DNA from: Microtetraspora glauca
GTDB lineage: Bacteria > Actinomycetota > Actinomycetes > Streptosporangiales > Streptosporangiaceae
Assembly (NCBI GenBank): GCA_001570385.1
Contig: BBYL01000026.1
Coordinates: 1-64,000 of the forward strand
DNA length: 64,000 nt
Direction of reading: 5' to 3'
Shown: positions 1,463-51,016 of the stretch, piece by piece
How the letters are laid out: each line of letters begins with the position of its first letter
Numbering within the stretch: the first letter of the stretch is position 1
Notes under the pieces: model-generated
What the model saw: the letters and a program-made list of their open reading frames with translations, nothing else
Told to the model about the DNA's origin: nothing
The model's database searches: none
Made by a program: the position numbers and the translations under genes

Positions 1463-1466
1463 TCAG

Positions 1467-1540
1467 TAGCGGGGACAGGATTTGAACCTGCGACCTCTGG
1501 GTTATGAGCCCAGCGAGCTACCGAACTGCTCCACCCCGCG
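1467..1540 (-). tRNA. Initiator tRNA-fMet (anticodon CAT), copy nearer the rRNA operon
   Basis: The minus strand starts CGCGGGGTGGAGCAG and ends TCCCCGCTA. The anticodon loop is CTCATAA between CTGGG and CCCAG. Initiator traits are visible: an unpaired first base (C1 opposite U72) and three consecutive G-C pairs at the base of the anticodon stem. No CCA is encoded, so it is added after transcription. It differs from the second copy by one D-loop base (GTTCGG against GCTCGG). Confidence 0.95.
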
Positions 1541-40035: not shown

Positions 40036-41214
40036 TCAGTAGGTGGGAAGCGAGGGGTCGACCGTCTTGATCCAGCTGAGCACGCCGCCGCCGACGTGGA
40101 CGGCGTCGGCGAAGCCGGCGTTCTTGAGGATCGCGAGGACCTCGGCCGACCGGGCGCCGGACTTGCAGTGCAGGACGATCTTCTTGTCCTGCGGCAGGCC
40201 CTCCAGAGCCGAGCCGTTGATGAACTCGCCCTTGGGGATCAGCACGGCGCCGGGGATGTTGACGATCTCGTACTCGTTCTGCTCGCGGACGTCGATCACG
40301 TAGATGTCGTCGCCGCGCTCCTTCATGTCCCTGAGCTCGGCCGCGGTGATCGTCGAGCCGAGAGCGGCCTCCTGGGCCTCGTCGGAGATGGTGCCGCAGA
40401 ACGCCTCGTAGTCGATCAGCTCGGTGATCGTGGGGTTCTTGCCGCAGAGCGGGCACTCGGGGTCCTTGCGAACCTTGACGTCGCGGTACTTCATCTCCAG
40501 CGCGTCATAGATCATCAGACGGCCGACGAGCGGCTCGCCGATGCCGGTGATGACCTTGATGGCCTCGTTGACCTGGATGGAGCCGATCGACGCGCACAGC
40601 ACGCCGAGGACGCCGCCCTCGGCGCAGGAGGGAACCATGCCGGGAGGCGGGGGCTCCGGGTAGAGGCAGCGGTAGCAGGGGCCGTGCTCGGCCCAGAACA
40701 CGCTGGCCTGCCCGTCGAAGCGGTAGATGGATCCCCAGACGTACGGCTTGCCGAGCAGCACCGCGGCGTCGTTGACCATGTAACGGGTGGCGAAGTTGTC
40801 GGTGCCGTCCACGATCAGGTCGTAGCCGGAGAAGATGTCCATCACGTTGTCGGTGGTGAGGGCCACGTTGTGGATCACCACGTTGACGAGCGGGTTGATC
40901 TCGCGGACGCTCGCCGCGGCGGAGTCGGCCTTCAGGCGGCCCACGTCGGACTGCCCGTGGATGACCTGCCGCTGCAGGTTCGACTCGTCCACGACGTCGA
41001 AGTCGATGATGCCCAGCGTGCCGACGCCCGCCGCGGCGAGGTACAGCAGCGCCGGGGAACCCAGGCCACCGGCGCCCACACAGAGCACCTTGGCGTTCTT
41101 GAGCCGCTTCTGCCCGGCCATCCCGACGTCGGGGATGATCAGGTGGCGCGAATAACGGCGCACCTCGTCGACGGTCAGCTCTGCTGCCGGCTCTACCAGT
41201 GGTGGCAACGACAC
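40036..41214 (-). CDS. moeZ: MoeZ-type adenylyltransferase/sulfurtransferase
   Basis: 392 aa from the GTG at 41214 (GGGAG upstream). The E1/MoeB domain (residues 1-270) has VLCVGAGGLGSPALLYLAAA, DESNLQRQVIHGQSDVG and zinc cysteines CYRC and CPLCG. The C-terminal rhodanese domain (about 290-392) has the active-site loop HCKSGARS. It adenylates and thiocarboxylates the C-terminal Gly of small sulfur carriers (MoaD, CysO, ThiS types) for cofactor and cysteine synthesis. It can work with MoaE encoded at 6.1 kb. Confidence 0.95.
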   Translation of the reverse strand: MSLPPLVEPAAELTVDEVRRYSRHLIIPDVGMAGQKRLKNAKVLCVGAGGLGSPALLYLAAAGVGTLGIIDFDVVDESNLQRQVIHGQSDVGRLKADSAAASVREINPLVNVVIHNVALTTDNVMDIFSGYDLIVDGTDNFATRYMVNDAAVLLGKPYVWGSIYRFDGQASVFWAEHGPCYRCLYPEPPPPGMVPSCAEGGVLGVLCASIGSIQVNEAIKVITGIGEPLVGRLMIYDALEMKYRDVKVRKDPECPLCGKNPTITELIDYEAFCGTISDEAQEAALGSTITAAELRDMKERGDDIYVIDVREQNEYEIVNIPGAVLIPKGEFINGSALEGLPQDKKIVLHCKSGARSAEVLAILKNAGFADAVHVGGGVLSWIKTVDPSLPTY

Positions 41215-41297: not shown

Positions 41298-42200
41298 TCA
41301 ACCGGCGTGGACGCGTGCCTCGGCGAGCAGGCGCCTGGCCTCGCGCGCCACGATCTCGGGAAACTCCATCTGGGCGACGTGCCCGGCGTGCCGGATGGTG
41401 ACGAGACGCACATCGGGGAACGTCCGCCCGGCGCGCGTCGCCATCCGGGCGTCGACCAGCCGGTCACGCCGGCCGTGGATGACCAGCGTGGGCGCCGTCA
41501 CCCGCGCGGCCTGCCGCCACAGGTTCTCCGGGCCGGTACGGAAGTACTCGCCGACGATGCCCCTGGCGGAGCCGACCAGCGCCTGGCCGGCGTGGGCCAG
41601 CGCGTCCCGCCGCCGCACTTCTTCGACCGCGAGCCTCAGGCGTTCGGGATGGACCCTGCGCAGGTCCGCGTAACACATGCCGAGGGTCGCCTGCACCCTG
41701 CGCTCGGCGGGGACCGTGCTCAGCCGCCGGACCGCCCATTCTCCGAGGCGCGGCGCCGCGGAGACGGCCACGCGGGCCGGGCCGTACCGGGGAAGCAGGT
41801 CGGGCAGCGCCGGTGACACCAGCACGAGCGACCTGACCAGCTCTGGCCGGGTGGCCGCGACGCGTACGGACACGGCGCCGCCGAGCGAGTTGCCGAACAG
41901 GTGGACCGGGCCGCCCAGGTGCTCGATGAGCGCGATGACCGCACGGGCGTGGCCGTCCACGGAGTAGTCCCCGTCCGCGGGCGCCGGCGAGTAACCCGCG
42001 CCGGGCAGGTCGAGCGCCCATCCGGTGACCTCGCCCGCCAACTCGCCCATCAGGTCGGTCCAGTTCGTCGCGGAGCCCGCCAGGCCGTGGACGAAGACCC
42101 CGGCCTCGGCCGGGCCACGGGGAGTGGACCGCACGTGGATCCGCGTGTTCCCCAGCTCGATCAGCTCGCCCGGCCAGTCCGGAATCGGCTCGACACCCAC
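41298..42200 (-). CDS. Alpha/beta hydrolase (LipV-like)
   Basis: 300 aa from the GTG at 42200, with a strong GGGGAGG ribosome site. Oxyanion region FVHGLAGSATNW, nucleophile elbow GNSLGGAVS, Asp in HGRRDRLVD and His in IRHAGHVAQME form a complete triad. No signal peptide, so cytoplasmic. Substrate unknown. Position next to moeZ corresponds to lipV (Rv3203) in mycobacteria. Confidence 0.85.
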   Translation of the reverse strand: MGVEPIPDWPGELIELGNTRIHVRSTPRGPAEAGVFVHGLAGSATNWTDLMGELAGEVTGWALDLPGAGYSPAPADGDYSVDGHARAVIALIEHLGGPVHLFGNSLGGAVSVRVAATRPELVRSLVLVSPALPDLLPRYGPARVAVSAAPRLGEWAVRRLSTVPAERRVQATLGMCYADLRRVHPERLRLAVEEVRRRDALAHAGQALVGSARGIVGEYFRTGPENLWRQAARVTAPTLVIHGRRDRLVDARMATRAGRTFPDVRLVTIRHAGHVAQMEFPEIVAREARRLLAEARVHAG

Positions 42201-42330: not shown

Positions 42331-42430
42331 AATAAAGCGACAAGCAAGGAGTAAAAGCGCACGATAGCCGTTTATCGGGCAGGCTACCCGGAAATCATGA
42401 CAACCAGGATGGACCATTCACGGACTATCC
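42331..42430 (+). promoter_or_regulatory. Array promoter 1
   Basis: Upstream element AATAAAGCGACAAGC..TAAAAGC (42331-42358), 11 nt, GTTT 42370-42373, 16 nt, GGAAAT 42390-42395. An inverted repeat GGATGGACC / GGACTATCC lies at 42407-42430. The same elements with the same spacing precede all seven array genes. GTTT plus a GG-type -10 recalls SigB/SigF-family promoters; the assignment is inferred. Confidence 0.6.
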
Positions 42431-42499
42431 AAGCCGTTTTCCAAAGTATTTGGGAAATGTCGAAAAACGGGGCAACCATCCTTTCAAGGGGGAAACACA

Positions 42500-42823
42500 A
42501 TGCCCAAGCTCAAGAGTGTCATCGCGGGTCTCGCCGTCAGCACGGCGCTGACCGGTGGAGCCGTCGCGCTCGGTGCTGCGACCACCACCACCGCGGCGAA
42601 CGCCGGCGTCGTCCAGGTCGGCTGCGGCGGCGGCTGCGGCGGCGGCTGGGGCGGTTGCGGCGGCGGCTGGGGCCGTGGCGGGCGTAACCACAACCGCAAC
42701 TGGAACCGGAACCACAACCGCCAGCACCAGCGCAACCACCAGAACCAGCGTCAGGCGCAGCGCCAGAACGTGATCAACAACATCAGGATCGACCGCGGCC
42801 GGGGCTTCGACGACGAGTTCTAA
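42500..42823 (+). CDS. Array protein 1: secreted Gly/Cys- and Asn/Arg-rich protein
   Basis: 107 aa. Signal peptide 1-35 (LTGGAVALGAATTTTAANA, cleavage before GVVQ). Mature chain: Gly/Cys/Trp head (VGCGGGCGGGWGGCGGGW, three Cys), Asn/Arg/His/Gln middle (NRNWNRNHNRQHQRNHQNQR), VINNIRI motif, short acidic end (GFDDEF). No enzyme domain; the mature protein is expected to be disordered or fibrous, secreted or surface-bound. First of seven paralogs, each with its own promoter and terminator. Function unknown to me; structural surface protein, metal binding and polyanion binding are all possible. Ribosome site AAGGGGG. Confidence 0.8.
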   Translation: MPKLKSVIAGLAVSTALTGGAVALGAATTTTAANAGVVQVGCGGGCGGGWGGCGGGWGRGGRNHNRNWNRNHNRQHQRNHQNQRQAQRQNVINNIRIDRGRGFDDEF

Positions 42824-42925
42824 TCACGGAGGGCGCAGGCGAGGCGACGTGTACCGACGCTCTACCGGAATCTCGGTTCTCCGGAACGCGAGGTTCGGCG
42901 GGCGGCCGACACGCCAGAGCAAGGT

Positions 42926-43080
42926 GGATCACGTGAGTTCCTCACTGTGAGGTGAACGTGATCCTCTGCCCACGATGATGCGAGGGCTCCCGCGAGGGAA
43001 GATCGCGGGAGCCCTCACCACAGCGAATCGCGAAAAGGCCATCCGGTCGGCAGCGCTGCCGACCGGATGGCCTTTTCGCG
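42926..43080 (+). terminator. Stacked palindromes and terminator after array gene 1
   Basis: Three inverted repeats in a row: an imperfect one (42926-42964, arms starting GGATCACGT), a 14-bp stem GAGGGCTCCCGCGA / TCGCGGGAGCCCTC (42982-43016), and a perfect 52-bp palindrome (43029-43080, arms CGCGAAAAGGCCATCCGG...) whose 3' arm ends in CCTTTTCGCG. The last is the likely terminator. Confidence 0.75.
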
Positions 43081-43259
43081 TTTCGCGCGTATTCGTTTGG
43101 CGCTCCAGACCCGCCGCACTTCAGGCGCAGTGGCCGCCGCCTACCATCCGAGCCTACGAGGCCGTCGCCACTCCCAAGGGAGCAATACCCATCAATCTCG
43201 ACAATTGCGACATCAGCGACATCTCACTACATAAGAAGCACTAATCGCTCAACGTCTCC

Positions 43260-43359
43260 AATAAAGTGACAAGCAGAGGGTAAAAGCCGCCGATCGCCGT
43301 TTATCTCTCGACGTGGCAGGAAATCAAAACGGCGCGAAGATGATCCGCATAAGGGTCAT
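43260..43359 (+). promoter_or_regulatory. Array promoter 2
   Basis: Upstream element AATAAAGTGACAAGC..TAAAAGC 43260-43287, 11 nt, GTTT 43299-43302, 16 nt, GGAAAT 43319-43324, inverted repeat ATGATCC / GGGTCAT 43340-43359. Confidence 0.6.
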
Positions 43360-43430
43360 CCGCATATTCTCCGAATTCGGAGAGCTGCAGAGTGTCGGGG
43401 CAAATCAATTCCTTCCAAGGGAGAACAACA

Positions 43431-43772
43431 ATGCCCAAGTTCAAGAACCTCGTCGGGCTACTCGCCCTCAGCACCGCGCTGACCGGCGGAGCGGTCGCCC
43501 TGGGCGCCGCTGCCACCACCACCACGGCGAGCGCCGCGGTCGTCCAGACCGGCGGCTGCGGCGGCGGCTGCGGCGGCGGCTGGGGCGGCCAGGGCCGCAA
43601 CCGCAACCGCAACTGGAACCGCAACCACAACCGCAACCACCAGAACCAGCGCGAGCACCAGCGCGAGCACCAGACGCAGCGCCAGCACGTGATCAACAAC
43701 ATCCGGGTGGACCGGAACGACGACTTCGACGACGACCTGCCCGAGATCCTGTCCAACACGAACGAGCTCTAA
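43431..43772 (+). CDS. Array protein 2: secreted Gly/Cys- and Asn/Arg-rich protein
   Basis: 113 aa from the ATG at 43431 (AAGGGAGAAC). Signal peptide to about residue 36 (ending TTTTASA-AVVQT). Head GGCGGGCGGGWGGQGR (two Cys), middle NRNRNWNRNHNRNHQNQREH, then QRQHVINNIRV and an acidic tail (DRNDDFDDDLPEILSNTNEL). The acidic tail and the basic middle have opposite charge, as in protein 1, so self-association is conceivable. Closest in head and middle to protein 4. Confidence 0.8.
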   Translation: MPKFKNLVGLLALSTALTGGAVALGAAATTTTASAAVVQTGGCGGGCGGGWGGQGRNRNRNWNRNHNRNHQNQREHQREHQTQRQHVINNIRVDRNDDFDDDLPEILSNTNEL

Positions 43773-43914
43773 AGAGCCGGACGTCGTCGGCGTCGAGGAA
43801 TGATCCCGCGTGCCCGCGTTCCACCGGGCCCCGTACGCCTCAAAGCAGGAGGCGAGGGCGGTCACGGGGAGCGCGGGCACGCTAGATGAGGGACATCCCG
43901 CTCCCGGAGGAGAG

Positions 43915-44019
43915 GCGGAGCCCTGCCTGTGGCAGGGCTCCGCTGGGGGCGGCGACGTCCGCGGCCCTCGCCGAGAACGCGGCCCATCCGGCCGGCATCC
44001 CGCCGGCCGGATTTTTGTT
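43915..44019 (+). terminator. Terminators after array gene 2
   Basis: GCGGAGCCCTGCC / GGCAGGGCTCCGC (43915-43943) is followed by ATCCGGCCGGC (43986-43996), loop ATCCC, GCCGGCCGGAT (44002-44012) and a T run. The second hairpin is repeated exactly after array gene 3. Confidence 0.85.
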
Positions 44020-44084
44020 ATCACACCAACTCGGACATATCGCACAAATACCCGCGAATCGAAATTTATCAACTCAACATTAGT

Positions 44085-44181
44085 AATAGAGCGACAAGCT
44101 GCAACTAAGAGCAGTCAATTACTGTTTGCCGCTAGATACGGGAGGAAATCACAGACCCGCAGGAGTGATCAACGAGGTCAC
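44085..44181 (+). promoter_or_regulatory. Array promoter 3
   Basis: Upstream element AATAGAGCGACAAGC..TAAGAGC 44085-44112, 11 nt, GTTT 44124-44127, 16 nt, GGAAAT 44144-44149, inverted repeat GTGATC / GGTCAC 44165-44181. Confidence 0.6.
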
Positions 44182-44265
44182 CCCGCCGTCCGCCGCAGCG
44201 ACTCTGGAAATATCCGAGAAAGTCGAAACGGGGGGCGAACGGATTCCTTTCGAAGGAGAAACGCA

Positions 44266-44610
44266 ATGCCCAAGTTCAACAGGCTCGCCGGGCTTCTCGC
44301 CGTCGGCGCCACTATGGCCGCCGGTGCGGTCGCGCTCGGCGCGGCGACCACCACCACGGCGAGCGCGTCCGTCATCCGGACCGGTGGCTGCGGCAACGGC
44401 GGCTGCGGCGGCAACGGCAGAGGCTGGAACCGCAACACGAACAACAAGCACCAGAGCCAGCACAACCAGCAGAACCAGCACCAGGAGCAGACCCAGTTCC
44501 TGATCAACGACGTCGTGGTCCCGGAGGACCGAAACCTCCCGCCGACCGCCACCACGACGTCCAGCAACAACGGCAGGGACATCCTTCGCGAATTCAGGGT
44601 CCTCGACTGA
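44266..44610 (+). CDS. Array protein 3: divergent secreted Gly/Cys- and Asn/Gln-rich protein
   Basis: 114 aa (GAAGGAGAAACGCA before the ATG). Signal peptide to about 34 (AAGAVALGAATTTTASA). Head GGCGNGGCGGNGRGWNRN (two Cys), middle richer in Gln and Lys (NNKHQSQHNQQNQHQEQTQ), and FLIND in place of VINNI. The tail (PPTATTTSSNNGRDILREFRVLD) is unlike the others. The most diverged member, but with the same signal peptide style and promoter. Confidence 0.78.
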   Translation: MPKFNRLAGLLAVGATMAAGAVALGAATTTTASASVIRTGGCGNGGCGGNGRGWNRNTNNKHQSQHNQQNQHQEQTQFLINDVVVPEDRNLPPTATTTSSNNGRDILREFRVLD

Positions 44611-44810
44611 GCCCGGCCTCGGCACGTGGGCCGGACCGGGAAGCGGCCACTCGTCTTTCGGCCGGAGGCGCGATCCCACGCCCGGGACCCGTGGCGCCAC
44701 ACGTGGACGGGATGTCCGTTCCTCCTCCGAGAGGCGGACGCCGGTTTCTGGCGGCGGACGGCCGCTCTCGCGGTCGCGAGCCGTCACGACACCCAACTGA
44801 AAACGCACCG

Positions 44811-44847
44811 ATCCGGCCGGCATCCCGCCGGCCGGATTTCTTTTTCA
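44811..44847 (+). terminator. Terminator after array gene 3
   Basis: ATCCGGCCGGC (44811-44821), loop ATCCC, GCCGGCCGGAT (44827-44837), TTTCTTTTTC. Identical 27-nt hairpin to that at 43986-44012. Confidence 0.9.
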
Positions 44848-44996
44848 CCCCGCCCATACGGGTTTCATCGACGGGGAACGCACGCGGATGACACGGAGTC
44901 GGATGCATCTCCGGACCTTCCGGCGGAAATCCACCCTGACCAAATCCGACATAAGGCACATCGGCCACAAATCACCTTCTATTGTCTCACTTCATT

Positions 44997-45095
44997 AATA
45001 GAGCGACAAGCAGAGACTAAGAGCGGCCAACCATCGTTTGCCGTCCGACATGGACGGAAACCAATGACAACGCAGAGGTGATCCACCACGGGTCA
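44997..45095 (+). promoter_or_regulatory. Array promoter 4
   Basis: Upstream element AATAGAGCGACAAGC..TAAGAGC 44997-45024, 11 nt, GTTT 45036-45039, 16 nt, GGAAAC 45056-45061, inverted repeat TGATCC / GGGTCA 45079-45095. Confidence 0.6.
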
Positions 45096-45173
45096 TCCAG
45101 ACATTCTCTTGAGAAGAACCTCGAGGATGTCGGAGTGTCGGCGCAAATCAATTCCTTTCAAGGGAGAAACGCA

Positions 45174-45659
45174 ATGCCGAAGTTCAAGAACCTCATCGGG
45201 TTCCTCGCCCTCAGCACCGCGCTGACCGGCGGAGCCGTCGCGCTGGGCGCAGCGACCACCGCCACCACGGCGAGCGCCGCGGTCGTCCAGACCGGCGGCT
45301 GCGGCGGCGGCTGCGGCGGTAACTGGGGCGGCCAGGGCCGCAACCGCAACCGCAACTGGAACCGCAACCACAACCGCCTTCGCCAGCACCAGCGCGAGCA
45401 CCAGCGCCAGCAGCAGCGCCAGCGTCAGCACGTGATCAACAACATCCGCATCCGCCAGCCGGAGCAGCGGCAGGAGCGCGAGCGCGAGCAGGGCCGCGAC
45501 CTCCGCGACGTGCTGGCCGAGGACATCCTCGCCCAGCTCGTCCTGGCCCGCGGCGGCAACGGCGGCAACGGCGGCGCCATCGCCGGCAGCACCAACTCCA
45601 ACGCCAACGGCGGCAACGGCGGCAACGGCAACGCCGCCGGCGCGGCCAACCAGCAGTAA
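45174..45659 (+). CDS. Array protein 4: long form with Gly/Asn-rich tail
   Basis: 161 aa from the ATG at 45174 (CAAGGGAGAAACGCA). Signal peptide to about residue 36, head GGCGGGCGGNWGGQGR (two Cys), middle NRNRNWNRNHNRLRQHQREH, QRQHVINNIRI. The long form adds a charged helix-like segment (QPEQRQEREREQGRDLRDVL, AEDILAQLVLARGG) and a Gly/Asn/Ala tail (NGGNGGAIAGSTNSNANGG, ending AANQQ). The tail recalls glycine-rich surface proteins such as PGRS in composition only. Proteins 4, 5 and 6 are the three long members. Confidence 0.8.
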   Translation: MPKFKNLIGFLALSTALTGGAVALGAATTATTASAAVVQTGGCGGGCGGNWGGQGRNRNRNWNRNHNRLRQHQREHQRQQQRQRQHVINNIRIRQPEQRQEREREQGRDLRDVLAEDILAQLVLARGGNGGNGGAIAGSTNSNANGGNGGNGNAAGAANQQ

Positions 45660-45936
45660 ATAAGCGCATTCACCGACCATGAGACCAGCGAGCGACAAGC
45701 GCCAGGCCGGTCTCACCTTCCGAAAACCGGCGGCATGTGCCGCCGTCGCGCCTGAAGGCCGTCTCAACGCTTTCCGCGTTTCATGGGAACGCGGTTCTTC
45801 CTGCTCGATGTTCACGGAGAGCACGGGCAGGCCGGAAGGGACCACGCCGGTCCCAGGCGTTGAGAACGGGATCCGGCGCGAAAAGCGAGAGTGTCCGTAA
45901 GCGAAGCGCCTCGCTTTCCTCGCCGAAAAACATCAC

Positions 45937-45980
45937 CCTGTCCGGCCCGCGCCATGCGAGCCGGACAGGATTTCAATTTT
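45937..45980 (+). terminator. Terminator after array gene 4
   Basis: CCTGTCCGGC 45937-45946 pairs with GCCGGACAGG 45960-45969, followed by ATTTCAATTTT. Confidence 0.8.
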
Positions 45981-46110
45981 CTGGCCCTTTCGGCCGCGGA
46001 CCATGACGCGCCGCGATCCGCTGATACGTGCGCATCGCCCGTACGTGATAGAGGCGCCCGGGAATCACACCATCATCCGCGCGGCAACAATCCGCCCACG
46101 CGGCACTCCC

Positions 46111-46209
46111 AATAGGACGAAAAGTACCGCCTAAGAAGCGTATGACCTCGTTTGCCGTCCCAAATTCCGGAAATCAAGACGATACGGAAATGACCCGCCT
46201 AGGGGCGTT
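46111..46209 (+). promoter_or_regulatory. Array promoter 5
   Basis: Upstream element, one base longer than the others (AATAGGACGAAAAG..TAAGAAGC, 46111-46139), 10 nt, GTTT 46150-46153, 15 nt, GGAAAT 46169-46174, inverted repeat AATGACCC / GGGGCGTT 46189-46209. Confidence 0.55.
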
Positions 46210-46283
46210 CGTAATATTCTTCAGAGAAGATCTCGAAGATGTCAGAGCGCCACGAGGAACCCATTCCTTTCAGGAGAAACGCA

Positions 46284-46751
46284 ATGCCCAAGTTCAAGAA
46301 CCTCGTCGGGCTTCTCGCCATCAGCACCGCGATGACCGGCGGAGCCGTCGCGCTGGCCGCGGCGACCACCACCACCGCCGCGAACGCCAGCGTCGTCCAG
46401 GCCGGCGGTTTCGCCAGCTGGGGCGGGGGCGGCTGGGGTCGCGGCAACCGGAACCGTAACTGGAACCGGAACCACAACCGCAACCGTCAGCACCAGCGCG
46501 ACGACCAGCGCCAGCACCAGAGGCAGCGCCAGCACGTGATCAACAACATCCGCATCCGCCAGCCGGAGCAGCGGCAGGAGCGCGAGCGCGAGGAGCGCGG
46601 CCTGCGGGCCGAGGACATCCTCGCCCAGCTCGTCCTGGCCCGCGGCGGCAACGGCGGCAACGGCGGCGCCATCGCCGGCAGCACCAACTCCAACGCCAAC
46701 GGCGGCGCCGGCGGCAACGGCAACGCCGCGGGCGCGGCCGACCAGCAGTAA
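46284..46751 (+). CDS. Array protein 5: long form without cysteines
   Basis: 155 aa (CAGGAGAAACGCA upstream). Signal peptide to about 35 (LAAATTTTAANA). The head has lost its cysteines (AGGFASWGGGGWGRGNR), which argues that disulfides or Cys-metal sites are not essential to the family. Middle NRNWNRNHNRNRQHQRDDQR, QRQHVINNIRI, charged segment EREREERGLRAEDILAQL, Gly/Asn tail nearly identical to protein 4. Its 3' UTR also matches that of gene 4. Confidence 0.8.
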   Translation: MPKFKNLVGLLAISTAMTGGAVALAAATTTTAANASVVQAGGFASWGGGGWGRGNRNRNWNRNHNRNRQHQRDDQRQHQRQRQHVINNIRIRQPEQRQEREREERGLRAEDILAQLVLARGGNGGNGGAIAGSTNSNANGGAGGNGNAAGAADQQ

Positions 46752-47009
46752 ATAAGCGCATTCTCCGACCGTGAGACCACCGAGCGACAAGCGCCAGGCC
46801 GGTCTCATCTTCTGAAAACCGGCGGCAGCAGGCCGCCGCGGCATCCGAAAGCCGTTTCCACGGTCTCCGCGTCCCACCCGGGACGCGGTTCTTCCTGGCC
46901 GCGTTCACGAGGAACGCGAGGAGGCCGGAAGGCCGAAAGGTCCCGGGGGTCAGACCGGCTACGGCGCCGACAGCGAGGGCGCGACTCAGCCCCTCGCCGA
47001 AAAACACCA

Positions 47010-47049
47010 CCCTGTCCGGCCCGCTTCGTGCGGGCCGGGCAGGGTTTTT
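47010..47049 (+). terminator. Terminator after array gene 5
   Basis: CCCTGTCCGGCCCGC 47010-47024, loop TTCGT, GCGGGCCGGGCAGGG 47030-47044, TTTTT. Confidence 0.92.
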
Positions 47050-47182
47050 CGCGTTCACCTCTTCTGTTACCCCAAGAAGAGGGGACAAAAGCCGCACAAA
47101 TGCCCGCACTGACGTATGCGACGGAATCCCCTCGTGAACGGCCCCGCGCCATCGAGGGAAACATGTCGCGATCGACGCGCCC

Positions 47183-47280
47183 AATGAAATGAAAAGAGCT
47201 GGCTAAGACCGGAACGGTCGCGTTTGTCATCCCACTCATCTGGAAATCAAGACAATACGGAAATGCCACATCAAGGGCAT
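47183..47280 (+). promoter_or_regulatory. Array promoter 6
   Basis: Upstream element AATGAAATGAAAAG..TAAGACC 47183-47210 (weaker match), 11 nt, GTTT 47222-47225, 16 nt, GGAAAT 47242-47247, inverted repeat ATGCC / GGCAT 47263-47280. Confidence 0.55.
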
Positions 47281-47357
47281 CCGGGGCGTCTTCGGGGGAT
47301 TTCGCGAAGATGTCAGAGCGTCAAGAGGAAACGATTCCTTTTCGGGGGAGAAACGCA

Positions 47358-47828
47358 ATGCCCAAGTTCAAGAACCTCGTCGGGCTTCTCGCCATCAGCA
47401 CCGCGATGACCGGCGGAGCCGTCGCGCTGGGCGCGGCGACCACCACCACCGCCGCGAACGCCGGCGTCGTCCAGGTCGGCTGCGGCGGCGGCGGCTGGGG
47501 CGGCGGCGGCTGGGGTCGCGGCAACCGCAACCGCAACCACAACCGCAACCACAACCGCAACCACCAGAACCAGCGCGAGCACCAGCGCGAAGAGCAGCGT
47601 CAGCGCCAGCACGTGATCAACAACATCCGCATCCGCCAGCCGGAGCAGCGGCGGGAGCGCGAGCGCGAGGAGCGCGGCCTGCGGGCCGAGGACATCCTCG
47701 CCCAGCTCGTTCTGGCCCGCGGCGGCAACGGCGGCAACGGCGGCAGCGTCACCAACAGCACCAACTCCAACGCCAACGGCGGCACCGGGGGCACCGGCAA
47801 CGCCGCAGGCACCGCCAACCAGCAGTAA
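47358..47828 (+). CDS. Array protein 6: long form with one cysteine
   Basis: 156 aa (GGGGGAGAAACGCA upstream). Signal peptide to about 35. Head VGCGGGGWGGGGWGRGNR (single Cys), middle NRNHNRNHNRNHQNQREHQR, QRQHVINNIRI, EREREERGLRAEDILAQLVL as in protein 5, tail NGGSVTNSTNSNANGGTGG with Ala to Thr/Ser changes, ending TANQQ. Likely a recent duplicate of the gene 5 lineage. Confidence 0.8.
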   Translation: MPKFKNLVGLLAISTAMTGGAVALGAATTTTAANAGVVQVGCGGGGWGGGGWGRGNRNRNHNRNHNRNHQNQREHQREEQRQRQHVINNIRIRQPEQRREREREERGLRAEDILAQLVLARGGNGGNGGSVTNSTNSNANGGTGGTGNAAGTANQQ

Positions 47829-48002
47829 GTAGGCGCATCCACCAAACCGTGAGACCGCGAGCTATCGACGGATGATCGTCCCGCCCCGTTCACCTGTCGT
47901 CCGCATCGGAGGATGAATCCACGACACCGGCGCGGACAAGCGGGCCGGGTAAGGGGTGACAACCACCGGGACGCCCGAGGGCTCACCATTCCGGAAACAC
48001 CG

Positions 48003-48044
48003 AGGCCCGTCCGGCCGGCGCCACGCCGATCGGACGGGCCTTTC
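48003..48044 (+). terminator. Terminator after array gene 6
   Basis: AGGCCCGTCCG 48003-48013 pairs with CGGACGGGCCT 48031-48041, followed by TTCCCC. Confidence 0.8.
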
Positions 48045-48209
48045 CCCATCTACGGCGACACGGAACCGCGCCGGATTTCACTCGGCGCCGCGTTCATCGC
48101 GAAATTCCACCGGGCCGGAGAGATATCCCACATGTGCCCCGATCGACCGCACGACTCACCGGCGACCTTCCCCTCGCTACGCAGCAAATCCCTCATTGCG
48201 GACGTCGTC

Positions 48210-48310
48210 AACGAAACGGCAAGCACACCATAAAAGACCAATTCCATCGTTTACCACCTGGCCGGTCAGGCAATCAAGACATCACAGAGATGATCCACAA
48301 AGGACGATCT
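48210..48310 (+). promoter_or_regulatory. Array promoter 7
   Basis: Upstream element AACGAAACGGCAAGC..TAAAAGAC 48210-48237, 11 nt, GTTT 48249-48252, 16 nt, GGCAAT 48269-48274, inverted repeat AGATGATCC / GGACGATCT 48288-48310. Confidence 0.55.
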
Positions 48311-48386
48311 CTCGGGCATTGTCTGCGGCAATCCAGAGAATGCCCAAATGTGGAGGAAAATCAATTCCTTTCAAAGGAGAAGCGCA

Positions 48387-48743
48387 ATGTCCATGCTGAA
48401 GAGCGCCATCGCGGGGCTGGTGATCAGCACCGCAATGACCGGCGGAGCCGTGGCCCTCGGCGCCACGACCACCGCGACCACGGCGAGCGCCGCCGTCGTC
48501 CAGACCGGCGGCTGCGGCTGCGGTAACTGGGGCGGCGCAGGTCGCAACCACAACCGCAACTGGAACCGCAACCACAACCGCAACCGCCAGCACCAGCGCG
48601 GGCACCAGCGGCAGCACCAGCGGCAGCGCCAGCACGTGATCAACAACATCACGATCCGTCTGCCCAGGGATGTTCGCGAAGAGCGCGCTGAGCCGACCGA
48701 CGCGACCACCGCGGCGCCCCTCACGCCTGTCGCCGCCGGCTGA
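48387..48743 (+). CDS. Array protein 7: short form
   Basis: 118 aa from the ATG at 48387 (AAAGGAGAAGCGCA). Signal peptide to about 36 (MSMLKSAIAGLVISTAMTGG start). Head GGCGCGNWGGAGR (two Cys), middle NHNRNWNRNHNRNRQHQRGH, QRQHVINNITI, and a Pro/Thr/Ala tail (TDATTAAPLTPVAAG). The tail differs again, so the family keeps its first two-thirds and swaps its end. Confidence 0.8.
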   Translation: MSMLKSAIAGLVISTAMTGGAVALGATTTATTASAAVVQTGGCGCGNWGGAGRNHNRNWNRNHNRNRQHQRGHQRQHQRQRQHVINNITIRLPRDVREERAEPTDATTAAPLTPVAAG

Positions 48744-48930
48744 GCCGACCTCCGTCGGCCACCTCACCGTGATACCCGCTCATCCTGGACGGGAGGCACG
48801 CGGAGAGGCGCCACCACACGGACGAGGAACACGTCTGCTTCCTCGCCCACACGATGAGATTCATCATCCAGCGCAGAAAGGCGGACGCCACGGGTGAGAT
48901 CCCGCGGGTCCTCGCCTTCCAACCCACTAC

Positions 48931-48975
48931 GGCCATCCGGCCCGGTTGATCCGGCCGGATGGCCATCTCTTTTCC
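48931..48975 (+). terminator. Terminator between the array and ku
   Basis: GGCCATCCGG 48931-48940 pairs with CCGGATGGCC 48955-48964, followed by ATCTCTTTT. It closes the last array unit. The rest of 48744-49105 has no gene. Confidence 0.8.
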
Positions 48976-49026: not shown

Positions 49027-49105
49027 GGATCACGCGGCCCAGGGTCACGCCGCGCTGGATCACACGGCCCAGGGTCACACGGCCCCAGGCTCACGCGGAG
49101 CGGGA
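49027..49105. repeat. Direct repeats beside the 3' end of ku
   Basis: GGATCAC(G/A)CGGCCCAGGG occurs at 49027 and 49057, with a shorter related copy (GGCCCCAGGCTCACGCGG) from 49081. They are non-coding, just downstream of the ku stop. Confidence 0.6.
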
Positions 49106-50026
49106 TCACGCGGAGCGGCGTGCCCCGCGCTTGCGAGGCGCCTTCTCCTCTTCCTCGGCACTGGTGTCCGCCTTCTTCGCAGCCTTCCCAGCGCCCTTCC
49201 CTGCGGCCTTCCCGCCGTCCGCCCTCCTGGCCGGCGCGCGTCCCTCGCGTTCCTTCTTGGCGGCCTCGACGCTGGCGCGGAGCGCGGCCATCAGGTCGAC
49301 GGCGGGCGCCTCCTCGGCGGGAGCCTCGGGGGCCACCACCTCCTTGCCGGCGATCTTCGCCTCGATGGTCGCCTGGAGCGCCTCGCGGTAGGTGTCCTTG
49401 TACTCCCCGGGATCGAAGTCCGCGACCATCGTCTCGATCAGGGACTCGGCCATCTTGAGCTCCTGCGGGCGGACGTCGATGTCCTCGTCGAGGAACGGGA
49501 ACTCCGCCGTGCGCACCTCGTCCGGCCACAACATCGTCTCCAGCACGAACACGCCGTCACGGACGCGGAGCGTCGCCAGGGACTCGCGCTGACGCAACGC
49601 CACCTTCACGACCGCCACCTGGCCCGAGCGCTCCAGCGCGTCCCTCAGCAGCACGTACGGCTTCGCCCCCTGCGCCTCCGGCTCCAGGTAGTACGACTTG
49701 GCGAAGTAGATGGGGTCGATCTGCTCGGCGGGGCTGAACTGCAGTACGTCGATCCGGCGGGACGTGGTCAGCGGCAGGTCGGCGAAGTCCTCGTCGGTCA
49801 GCACCACCATGTCGCCGCTCGGCAGTTCGAAGCCCTTGGCGATGTCGGAGTAGGACACCTCTTGGCCGTCGGCCGTGCACACCCGCTTGTACTTGATGCG
49901 CCCGCCGTCCTCCCGGTGCACCTGGTGGAAGGCGACATCCTTCTGCTCCGTCGCGGAGTAGAGCTTCACGGGAATGGTGACCAGCCCGAACGATATGGCG
50001 CCCTTCCAGATGCTGCGCATAGCCAC
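49106..50026 (-). CDS. ku: Non-homologous end joining protein Ku
   Basis: 306 aa from a GTG at 50026 (an ATG two codons on, at 50020, would give MRSIWKG). Ku core: RSIWKGAISFGLVTIPVKLY, KRVCTADGQEV, YFAKSYYLEP, the helical ADFDPGEYKDTYREAL near the end of the core. A Lys/Ala/Arg-rich C-terminal tail (KAAGKGAGKAAKKAD) is typical of actinobacterial Ku and contacts DNA. It is a homodimer that binds DNA ends and recruits LigD. Divergent from the LigD polymerase gene, 108 nt apart, suggesting joint control. Confidence 0.95.
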   Translation of the reverse strand: MAMRSIWKGAISFGLVTIPVKLYSATEQKDVAFHQVHREDGGRIKYKRVCTADGQEVSYSDIAKGFELPSGDMVVLTDEDFADLPLTTSRRIDVLQFSPAEQIDPIYFAKSYYLEPEAQGAKPYVLLRDALERSGQVAVVKVALRQRESLATLRVRDGVFVLETMLWPDEVRTAEFPFLDEDIDVRPQELKMAESLIETMVADFDPGEYKDTYREALQATIEAKIAGKEVVAPEAPAEEAPAVDLMAALRASVEAAKKEREGRAPARRADGGKAAGKGAGKAAKKADTSAEEEEKAPRKRGARRSA

Positions 50027-50134: not shown

Positions 50135-51016
50135 GTGACCAGGAAGGTACGGGTCCAGGTCGAGGGCAGGGAGCTGGTGCTGACCAACCTCGGCAAGACG
50201 CTCTACCCCGACGCCGGGTTCACCAAGGCCGAGGTCATCGACTACTACACCCGGATCGCCCCGGCCCTGCTCCCCCACCTGCGCGGCCGCCCGCTGACCG
50301 TCAAGCGCTACCCCGACGGCGTCGACGGCCAGTTCTTCTTCGAGAAGAACGTGCCCGGCCACACCCCCGACTGGGTCCGTACGGCCACCCTGCCCGCCCC
50401 CGGCAGCTCGAAGGGGCGAGAGAAGATCGAATTCGCGATCGTGGACGACCTGGCGACGCTCGTCTACTACGCCAACCTCGCCGCGTTGGAACTTCACGTC
50501 CCCATGTGGCGCGTCTCCGAGGAGGGAGACCCGCTGCCACCGGACACCCTGGTCTTCGACCTCGATCCCGGCGCCCCCGCGACGATCGTGGAGTGTTGCG
50601 AGGTGGCCCTCCTGCTCCGCGAGGTGCTCAAGGAGGACGGCCGCGAGGGATCACCCAAGACCAGCGGCAGCAAGGGCATGCAGCTCTACGTGCCGTGGAA
50701 CGGCGACGAGGACACGAACGCGTACGCCCGCGAACTCGCTCGGCGGCTGGAGCGCGAGCACACGTTCGTCACCAGCGTGATGGCCAGGCGGGAACGGCCG
50801 GGGAAGGTGTTCATCGACTGGAGCCAGAACAACCCGGCGAAGACCACCGTCGCCCCCTACTCCCTGCGGGCCGGCAGCGTCCCGACCGTGTCGACCCCGC
50901 TTTCGTGGGCAGAGGTGGATGCCTGTACGGACCCGGGACAGCTCGTTTACACGGCACGAGACGTGCTGGACCGGGTCGAGCGGCATGGAGACCTGTTCCG
51001 GGCCTCCACCACTTAG
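50135..51016 (+). CDS. LigD-type NHEJ polymerase (primase-like domain only)
   Basis: 293 aa from the GTG at 50135 (GGAGGTGC upstream). It matches the LigD polymerase domain: LTNLGKTLYPDAGFTKAEVI, RPLTVKRYPDGVDGQFFFEK, FDLDPG (catalytic Asp pair), SGSKGMQLYVPW, and the final WAEVDACTDP. Ligase and nuclease domains are absent, so a separate ATP-dependent ligase must act elsewhere. It fills in or extends ends held by Ku. Stand-alone polymerase domains next to ku are known in actinobacteria. Confidence 0.92.
   Translation: MTRKVRVQVEGRELVLTNLGKTLYPDAGFTKAEVIDYYTRIAPALLPHLRGRPLTVKRYPDGVDGQFFFEKNVPGHTPDWVRTATLPAPGSSKGREKIEFAIVDDLATLVYYANLAALELHVPMWRVSEEGDPLPPDTLVFDLDPGAPATIVECCEVALLLREVLKEDGREGSPKTSGSKGMQLYVPWNGDEDTNAYARELARRLEREHTFVTSVMARRERPGKVFIDWSQNNPAKTTVAPYSLRAGSVPTVSTPLSWAEVDACTDPGQLVYTARDVLDRVERHGDLFRASTT

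What the first reader, a model, noticed from the sequence alone, without database searches (positions are those of the whole stretch)
42331..48975. Seven-copy tandem array of unrecognised small secreted Gly/Cys- and Asn/Arg/His-rich proteins
Seven consecutive plus-strand genes encode 107-161 aa proteins with the same design: signal peptide ending in an AATTTT-Ala stretch, VVQ-type mature start, Gly/Cys/Trp head, Asn/Arg/His/Gln-rich middle with repeated NRN/NHN triplets, a VINNI motif (LIND in copy 3), then a variable end (acidic, Pro/Thr, or a Gly/Asn tail). Each is its own transcription unit, so this is expanded dosage or variants of one surface or extracellular component rather than an operon. 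I recognise no known family. Candidate roles (inference): structural or coat protein of hyphae or spores, metal or polyanion binding, or adhesion.
Basis: partly seen in the sequence, partly recalled or inferred. Interest (0 to 1): 0.88.

Follow-up and report, generated by a model that had tools for sequence, protein, structure and literature searches.

The report
Modular secreted surface-protein array in Streptosporangiaceae
Seven neighbouring bacterial genes make small, probably disordered secreted proteins that share one front module and one type of promoter, and relatives place the same module on collagen-like and enzyme proteins, which suggests an undescribed building kit for a cell- or spore-surface coat.

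Summary
Seven plus-strand genes (107-161 aa) share a signal peptide, a Gly/Cys/Trp head, an Asn/Arg/His/Gln-rich segment (N+Q 22-28% of the mature chain, 4% in 28 other window ORFs) and a VINN(I)-type motif. Pfam, NCBIfam and PDB sequence searches give no family. The array is more than dosage. It sits at a conserved place (MoeZ - hydrolase - array - Ku - LigD - TetR) in named Microtetraspora, Planotetraspora and Thermobispora and in unnamed relatives. Slots 1, 2, 3 and last keep their best hit in the same slot in 77 of 80 comparisons; middle copies tend to group by species. An extended promoter pattern has 41 matches in 9 of 11 genomes, all upstream of genes of this family. GTTT-N16-GG(A/C)AAT resembles promoters of SigB/SigF-family (stress/sporulation) sigma factors but lacks their third G. 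The module is also the N-terminus of collagen-like, serine-hydrolase and stalk proteins. Best reading: short scaffold subunits of a clade-specific extracellular coat, probably on spores or aerial hyphae, whose module also recruits larger surface proteins. Coat function and location are inferred: AlphaFold gives no fold (pLDDT 49), mature parts evolve fast, and there are no expression data.

The parts
42353..42395 (+). promoter-like block of gene 1 (AAAAGC box, GTTT-N16-GGAAAT)
42500..42823 (+). gene 1 (slot 1), 107 aa, acidic end RGFDDEF
43023..43086 (.). 64-nt inverted repeat with no spacer after gene 1, terminator-like
43282..43324 (+). promoter-like block of gene 2
43431..43772 (+). gene 2 (slot 2), 113 aa, acidic end DDDLPEILSN
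43986..44012 (+). terminator-like hairpin after gene 2
44107..44149 (+). promoter-like block of gene 3
44266..44610 (+). gene 3 (slot 3), 114 aa, LINDVVVP and Pro/Thr tail; tail conserved between species
44810..44838 (+). terminator-like hairpin after gene 3
45019..45061 (+). promoter-like block of gene 4
45174..45659 (+). gene 4 (slot 4), 161 aa, Gly/Asn tail
45935..45971 (.). hairpin after gene 4 (scored as terminator-like on the minus strand)
46150..46174 (+). promoter-like block of gene 5
46284..46751 (+). gene 5 (middle slot), 155 aa, Gly/Asn tail
46992..47047 (.). repeat holding a GC-rich inverted repeat after gene 5
47205..47247 (+). promoter-like block of gene 6
47358..47828 (+). gene 6 (middle slot), 156 aa, Gly/Asn tail
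48006..48042 (.). repeat holding a GC-rich inverted repeat after gene 6
48234..48274 (+). promoter-like block of gene 7
48387..48743 (+). gene 7 (last slot), 118 aa, VINNITIRLPR end
48932..48965 (.). GC-rich inverted repeat after gene 7
   Evidence: read in the sequence
40036..41214 (-). MoeZ-like gene, left synteny anchor (name recalled from sequence type; no family search run)
41298..42200 (-). alpha/beta-hydrolase-like gene, left flank (name recalled)
49106..50026 (-). Ku-like gene, right flank (name recalled)
50135..51016 (+). LigD-polymerase-like gene, right flank (name recalled)

Best explanation
The array encodes short scaffold subunits of an extracellular coat or matrix made by Streptosporangiaceae, most likely on spores or aerial hyphae. 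Shown by sequence: each protein has a Sec-type signal peptide (by eye) and a common module (Gly/Cys/Trp head, Asn/basic/Gln-rich segment, short hydrophobic motif Q-x-Q-x-[VL][IL]x[ND][IFV]), then a slot-specific tail; the same module starts larger collagen-like, serine-hydrolase and stalk proteins; array genes and many dispersed copies share one promoter type. Inferred: a SigB/SigF-type sigma factor, perhaps with a dedicated activator, switches them on together late in development; the exported, disordered, positively charged chains bind the anionic wall or one another through the module; tails give each slot its property; larger proteins carrying the module are held in the same layer.
For: Syntenic place in 17 of 20 loci that I picked from the hits, in the window and three congeners, and in Thermobispora bispora (L164) and L165. 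Module hits in 125 of 345 genomes of the order, 20 of 70 genera, but 11 of 394 in the class, 10 of them in the same family, own genome included. Fusions: PF00144 in L109, L154, L158; collagen repeat above cut-off in L114, below cut-off in L161 and L190. Promoter motif in 90 of 116 members against 12 of 11,600 first-order random sequences; of 284 ORFs of 180 aa or more in the same loci 10 had it, and all 10 proved to be family members. Extended motif: 41 sites in 9 of 11 genomes, reversed control 0, all 41 upstream of family genes by the places. A promoter-only scan led to L190, L192 and L207, which match the module profile at 8e-23, 1e-17 and 2e-17. GTTT and spacing match S. coelicolor SigB-family promoters in PMC8346170 (passages). 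Slots. Composition.
Against: No expression, localisation or proteomic data. AlphaFold2 gives pLDDT 49.1 and pTM 0.14 and draws residues 62-90 as a low-confidence helix, so the strand or assembly idea is unsupported. Motif-plus-tail dN/dS is near 1 at slots 2, 4 and last (0.94, 1.17, 0.84), which could mean little constraint. 26 of 116 members lack the exact promoter, among them four Pro/Thr-stalk fusions. Three of 18 genomes, all of unnamed genus g39, have no match to the promoter pattern, and two Planotetraspora genomes none to that. Of ten off-array matches, five were examined: L187 is another secreted protein and L189 has no ORF. The -10 is GG(A/C)AAT, not GGGTAY. Chaplin-domain hits coexist in the family (95 of 120 genomes, G000 included), so the coat role is not vacant. 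In several genera the match rests mostly on the signal peptide plus synteny.
Confidence: 0.5

Rival explanations
1. The proteins are polycationic wall- or environment-binding adhesins or polyanion binders that coat growing hyphae, with no special link to sporulation.
For: Net positive charge of the part before VINN in all seven (+3 to +9); surface-type fusion partners.
Against: A well-conserved GTTT is, in S. coelicolor, typical of promoters of the sporulation sigma factors SigF/H/N (PMC8346170 passages); expression was not measured here.
Confidence: 0.18
2. The array makes metal-binding or metal-scavenging proteins through Cys/His-rich heads.
For: GCGGGCGGGW-type heads and His-containing segments.
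Against: Cys is not kept: 0 in gene 5 and 1 in gene 6; relatives such as L118 and L119 have Pro-rich heads without Cys. No metal-regulator site was looked for.
Confidence: 0.1
3. The genes encode fast-evolving secreted antagonism peptides, with conserved signal peptide and variable mature part as in defensin or bacteriocin arrays (comparison recalled).
For: dN/dS rises from 0.40 (signal) to 0.78 (motif plus tail); mature regions differ greatly between genera.
Against: No plausible immunity gene was called between the copies; the caller was crude and gave only two antisense ORFs, 44178-44702 and 48721-48966. Slot 3 motif plus tail is conserved (dN/dS 0.21). The module is fused to collagen-like and hydrolase proteins.
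Confidence: 0.08
4. The array only raises the dose of one protein.
For: Middle copies tend to group by species: starred for Microtetraspora sp. NBRC 16547 (100/99), weaker elsewhere.
Against: Slots 1, 2, 3 and last keep distinct tails across five species.
Confidence: 0.07

Closest known systems
BclA-type exosporium proteins of Bacillus/Clostridioides (recalled; only a search listing seen)
   Same: A short N-terminal leader shared by several surface proteins, followed by collagen-like and C-terminal parts.
   Different: Sec-type signal peptide, different host group, and short array members that lack any collagen part; leader sequences were not compared.
Chaplins (PF03777) and rodlins of Streptomyces (recalled)
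   Same: Small secreted proteins in several copies per genome, on hyphal or spore surface.
   Different: No PF03777 match in the seven proteins; mature chains are polar and mostly cationic; chaplin-domain hits occur in the same genomes. Rodlins were not compared directly.
SspA of Actinoplanes missouriensis (PMC13293333, abstract and outline seen)
   Same: Putatively disordered secreted protein on the spore surface, needed for rigid sporangia.
   Different: SspA has a sortase signal; none of the seven has LPxTG (read). No sequence relation was tested.
CotG-like cationic coat proteins of Bacillus (recalled)
   Same: Disordered, repetitive, positively charged.
   Different: Assembled on endospores inside the mother cell; not compared here.

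Membership tests
Chaplin (PF03777) | match to the chaplin domain | tested here: not met
   Pfam scan of the seven proteins, E up to 1: no PF03777
BclA-like exosporium proteins | collagen-like repeat | tested here: not met
   absent in the seven; above cut-off only in relative L114 of the same genome
BclA-like exosporium proteins | BclA/ExsF N-terminal leader sequence | not tested
   no leader sequence compared
Sortase-anchored spore proteins (SspA, long chaplins) | C-terminal LPxTG or LAxTG with membrane segment | tested here: not met
   none seen by eye in the alignment of the seven
SigB/SigF-family promoters | GTTT in the -35 region | tested here: met
   GTTT-N15/16-GG[AC][AG]A[TC] in 90 of 116 members, 12 of 11,600 random sequences
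SigB/SigF-family promoters | about 16 nt between GTTT and the -10 | tested here: met
   16 nt in 79 of 86 sites (the pattern allowed 14-17)
SigB/SigF-family promoters | first three residues of the -10 are G | tested here: not met
   third base A 86%, C 14%, G 0 of 86 although G was allowed; S. coelicolor SigF examples such as GGACAT deviate too
SigB/SigF-family promoters | A at position 5 of the -10 | tested here: inconclusive
   A was required by the search pattern; it is also seen in the ungated alignment of 36 sites
SigB/SigF-family promoters | transcription by such a sigma factor | not testable with these tools
   needs in vitro transcription or a sigma mutant
Any curated Pfam/NCBIfam family | score above curated cut-off | tested here: not met
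   the seven proteins (closest NCBIfam: acid_shock_Asr, 21.1 of 50 bits)

The most novel reading that the evidence does not exclude
Streptosporangiaceae build a spore or aerial-hypha coat from an undescribed modular system: an N-terminal assembly tag carried by an array of short, slot-specialised disordered proteins at one conserved chromosomal place, and by dispersed collagen-like filaments, serine hydrolases and stalk proteins, most of them switched on by one dedicated promoter type.
Probability: 0.4. Interest if true: 0.8.

Novelty: new variant of a known kind. Interest (0 to 1): 0.62.

Why it matters
How rare actinomycetes build their spore and sporangium surfaces is, as far as I recall, largely open outside Streptomyces and Actinoplanes. 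This gives a clade-specific gene set, a module definition and a promoter motif that together name a candidate parts list. If the module is a surface-assembly tag, it could be used to display proteins on these organisms, and the array would be a case of fast-evolving mature proteins at a fixed place under conserved control.

Tried and rejected
Riboswitch or known RNA in the long 5' regions: Rfam gave only two tRNAs. WhiG/FliA-type promoter: TAAA-to-GCCG spacing is about 11, not 15 (consensus recalled, no call). ECF-type promoter: no fitting upstream hexamer seen by eye. Sigma-70: one weak minus-strand match, 0.7 expected. Chaplin replacement: rejected as an exclusion argument, since chaplin-domain hits occur in 95 of 120 genomes. 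Community proteomics of Thermobispora relatives (PMC4999548, passages): none of four terms for such proteins occurs in the main text. Structure prediction: no usable model, so no fold search was run. One search suggested that dispersed Microtetraspora copies lack the promoter (0 of 14); aligned upstream regions of nine of them show GTTT with GGAGAT in 9 of 9, so that was an artefact of the pattern and of misplaced starts. Rows dropped before the count: L113 (no start found), one copy at the end of L095, and L114 (misplaced start; with its proper start it has the site). PHROGs and PADLOC were not searched. One stretch (L166) was fetched and not used.
Full report
1. Observation. The window holds seven consecutive plus-strand genes of 107-161 aa at the stated place. 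They form a seven-copy repeat family with spacing 835-1110 nt. All start with a similar signal peptide (MPKFKNLVGLLA..STALTGGAVALGAATTTT.A.A in consensus), continue with a Gly/Cys/Trp head and an Asn/Arg/His/Gln segment, reach VINNI (LINDV in gene 3), and end differently. N+Q makes up 22-28% of the mature chains; 28 other window ORFs that score well average 4.2% with a maximum of 8.6%. Third-position GC is 0.91-0.97. Pfam and NCBIfam give nothing near a curated cut-off, Rfam only two tRNAs, and a profile of 29 module sequences finds nothing credible among PDB sequences (best E 0.51).

2. Own genome and relatives. The genome (G000, 9.27 Mb) has further module genes on contigs C46, C13, C6, C20 and C27, and a fragment on C12 that lacks the signal peptide. 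G321:C1 has 4,189,976 bp, the length published for Thermobispora bispora (PMC3035289, passages). One search also names Nonomuraea turkmeniaca (L060). With the seven-gene profile 116 of 341 genomes of the family match; with the 29-row module profile 125 of 345 genomes of the order, 20 of 70 genera, and 11 of 394 genomes drawn from the class, of which 10, the own genome included, are in the same family and one is a weak hit to the signal region (E 5e-4). How many of the 394 lie outside the family was not given. The module thus appears confined to this family. In those searches only 12-14 candidates per genome were scored, so copy numbers there are lower bounds.

3. Synteny. The flanking genes (S8 protease, MoeZ-like, alpha/beta hydrolase on one side; Ku, LigD polymerase, TetR on the other; names recalled) also flank 17 of the 20 stretches that I chose from the hits, on at least one side (some contigs end), and those of three congeners, of T. 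bispora (L164) and of L165. N. turkmeniaca L060 has Ku, LigD and TetR beside its copies. The other three of the 20 (L101, L102, L109) are dispersed copies. Mature sequences change greatly between genera at this same place: LLRDFTLVLTPFQK-type in Planotetraspora, Thermobispora and others, basic segments followed by TNN/INN and Q-rich tails elsewhere, and Trp/Asn-rich types.

4. Slots. Among 36 array proteins of five species, the best hit in another species sits in the same slot in 124 of 144 comparisons (slots 1-4, middle, last); for slots 1, 2, 3 and last alone it is 77 of 80. In the tree slot 3 (100/100) and the last slot (99/98) are starred groups, slot 1 splits into two starred groups, slot 2 is weakly held, and middle copies tend to group by species, starred only for NBRC 16547. 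Pooled dN/dS over slots 1-4 and last is 0.40 in the signal peptide, 0.62 in head plus Asn/Arg part and 0.78 in motif plus tail; for motif plus tail it is 0.51, 0.94, 0.21, 1.17 and 0.84 in slots 1, 2, 3, 4 and last. Synonymous change is probably underestimated in such GC-rich genes, so these ratios are likely upper estimates (inference). The copies are therefore different proteins with a common front, and only the middle ones look like dosage.

5. Promoter. Alignment of 36 Microtetraspora upstream regions shows a block ending about 100 nt before the start codon: CAATAAAgcGACAAGC..cTAARAGC..CGTTTgcC..N..GGAAATCAaGAC. GTTT-N16-GG(A/C)AA(T/C) recurs in other genera; among 86 sites taken by pattern the spacing is 16 in 79, and the upstream AA pair, which the pattern did not ask for, is present in 98-100%. 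With corrected starts 90 of 116 members have the site at -165 to -115, against 12 of 11,600 first-order random sequences. Of 284 ORFs of 180 aa or more in the same loci 10 have it, and all 10 are family members, L114 among them, so no unrelated ORF of that set has it. The own genome has 10 matches to a short form: the seven array genes and three others without the module (reversed control 2). In 15 of 18 chosen genomes a similar form has 52 matches, control 2: 42 in arrays and 10 elsewhere. Of five of these ten that I examined, L190, L192 and L207 precede proteins that match the module profile (E 8e-23, 1e-17, 2e-17), L187 precedes an unrelated secreted protein and L189 no ORF. The form extended by the upstream AARANC has 41 matches in 9 of 11 genomes, control 0, and all 41 lie just upstream of family genes (matched to the places); one of them (G077) precedes an array gene without the VINNI/LLRDFTL motif. 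The two Planotetraspora genomes gave none with this stricter form. S. coelicolor SigB-family promoters have GTTT-like -35 regions, often 16 nt between GTTT and the -10, and those of the sporulation sigma factors SigF/H/N keep GTTT best; a SigF-dependent example has GGACAT and a SigF/H-dependent one GGTAAA (PMC8346170, passages; see also PMC4282423, passages). The third base differs from the usual G, so a dedicated sigma factor or activator is possible. This is a resemblance, not proof of use.

6. Fusions. The module is the N-terminus of serine hydrolases (PF00144 in L109, L154, L158; L155 and L156 alike by eye), of collagen-repeat proteins (PF01391 above cut-off in L114, below in L161 and L190; L160 by eye), of Pro/Thr or Ser/Gln stalk proteins (L115, L120-122, L157, L162, L163, L167, by eye) and of a repeat protein (L159, no Pfam hit). 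The array-type promoter stands before L114, L190 and L207 but not, in exact form, before L109, L115 and L120-122. The placement of the module directly after the signal peptide of surface-type proteins is the main reason to read it as an attachment or co-assembly tag.

7. Structure. AlphaFold2 with 31 sequences gives mean pLDDT 49.1 and pTM 0.14, no residue at 70 or more, and a low-confidence helix at 62-90. The proteins are probably disordered alone. The idea that the VINNI/LLRDFTL motif forms a strand is inference and was not supported by this model.

8. Verdict. A coat or matrix on spores or aerial hyphae is the best explanation (0.5). Searches of the paper library found nothing on such proteins (listings only); one search gave the Actinoplanes comparison, of which I saw the abstract and outline of PMC13293333. 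The library lacks most subscription journals.

Noticed in passing
window 43023-43086: Inverted repeat of two 32-nt arms, 97% complementary with no spacer, after gene 1; unusual for a terminator.
   Followed up: no
window 49027-49083: 15-nt tandem repeats (GGATCACGCGGCCCA type) between the array and the Ku stop codon.
   Followed up: no
G000:C12:230764-230985 (L113): Fragment of a family member that keeps VINNI and the Gly/Asn tail but has no signal peptide; perhaps a decaying copy.
   Followed up: partly
L090, L091, L098, L099, L164: Arrays of other genera also hold Trp/Asn-rich secreted proteins sharing a motif like F.I.A..VAIGFQDKTNRD (by eye); same place and signal peptide, different mature part.
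   Followed up: partly
G136:C1:6310562 (L189): Array-type promoter site with no ORF called behind it; possible small RNA or lost gene.
   Followed up: no
L161:6693-7532: Collagen-like fusion whose second half looks frame-shifted.
   Followed up: no
window 1466-1540 and 1835-1909: Two neighbouring tRNA-Met (CAT) genes on the minus strand.
   Followed up: no
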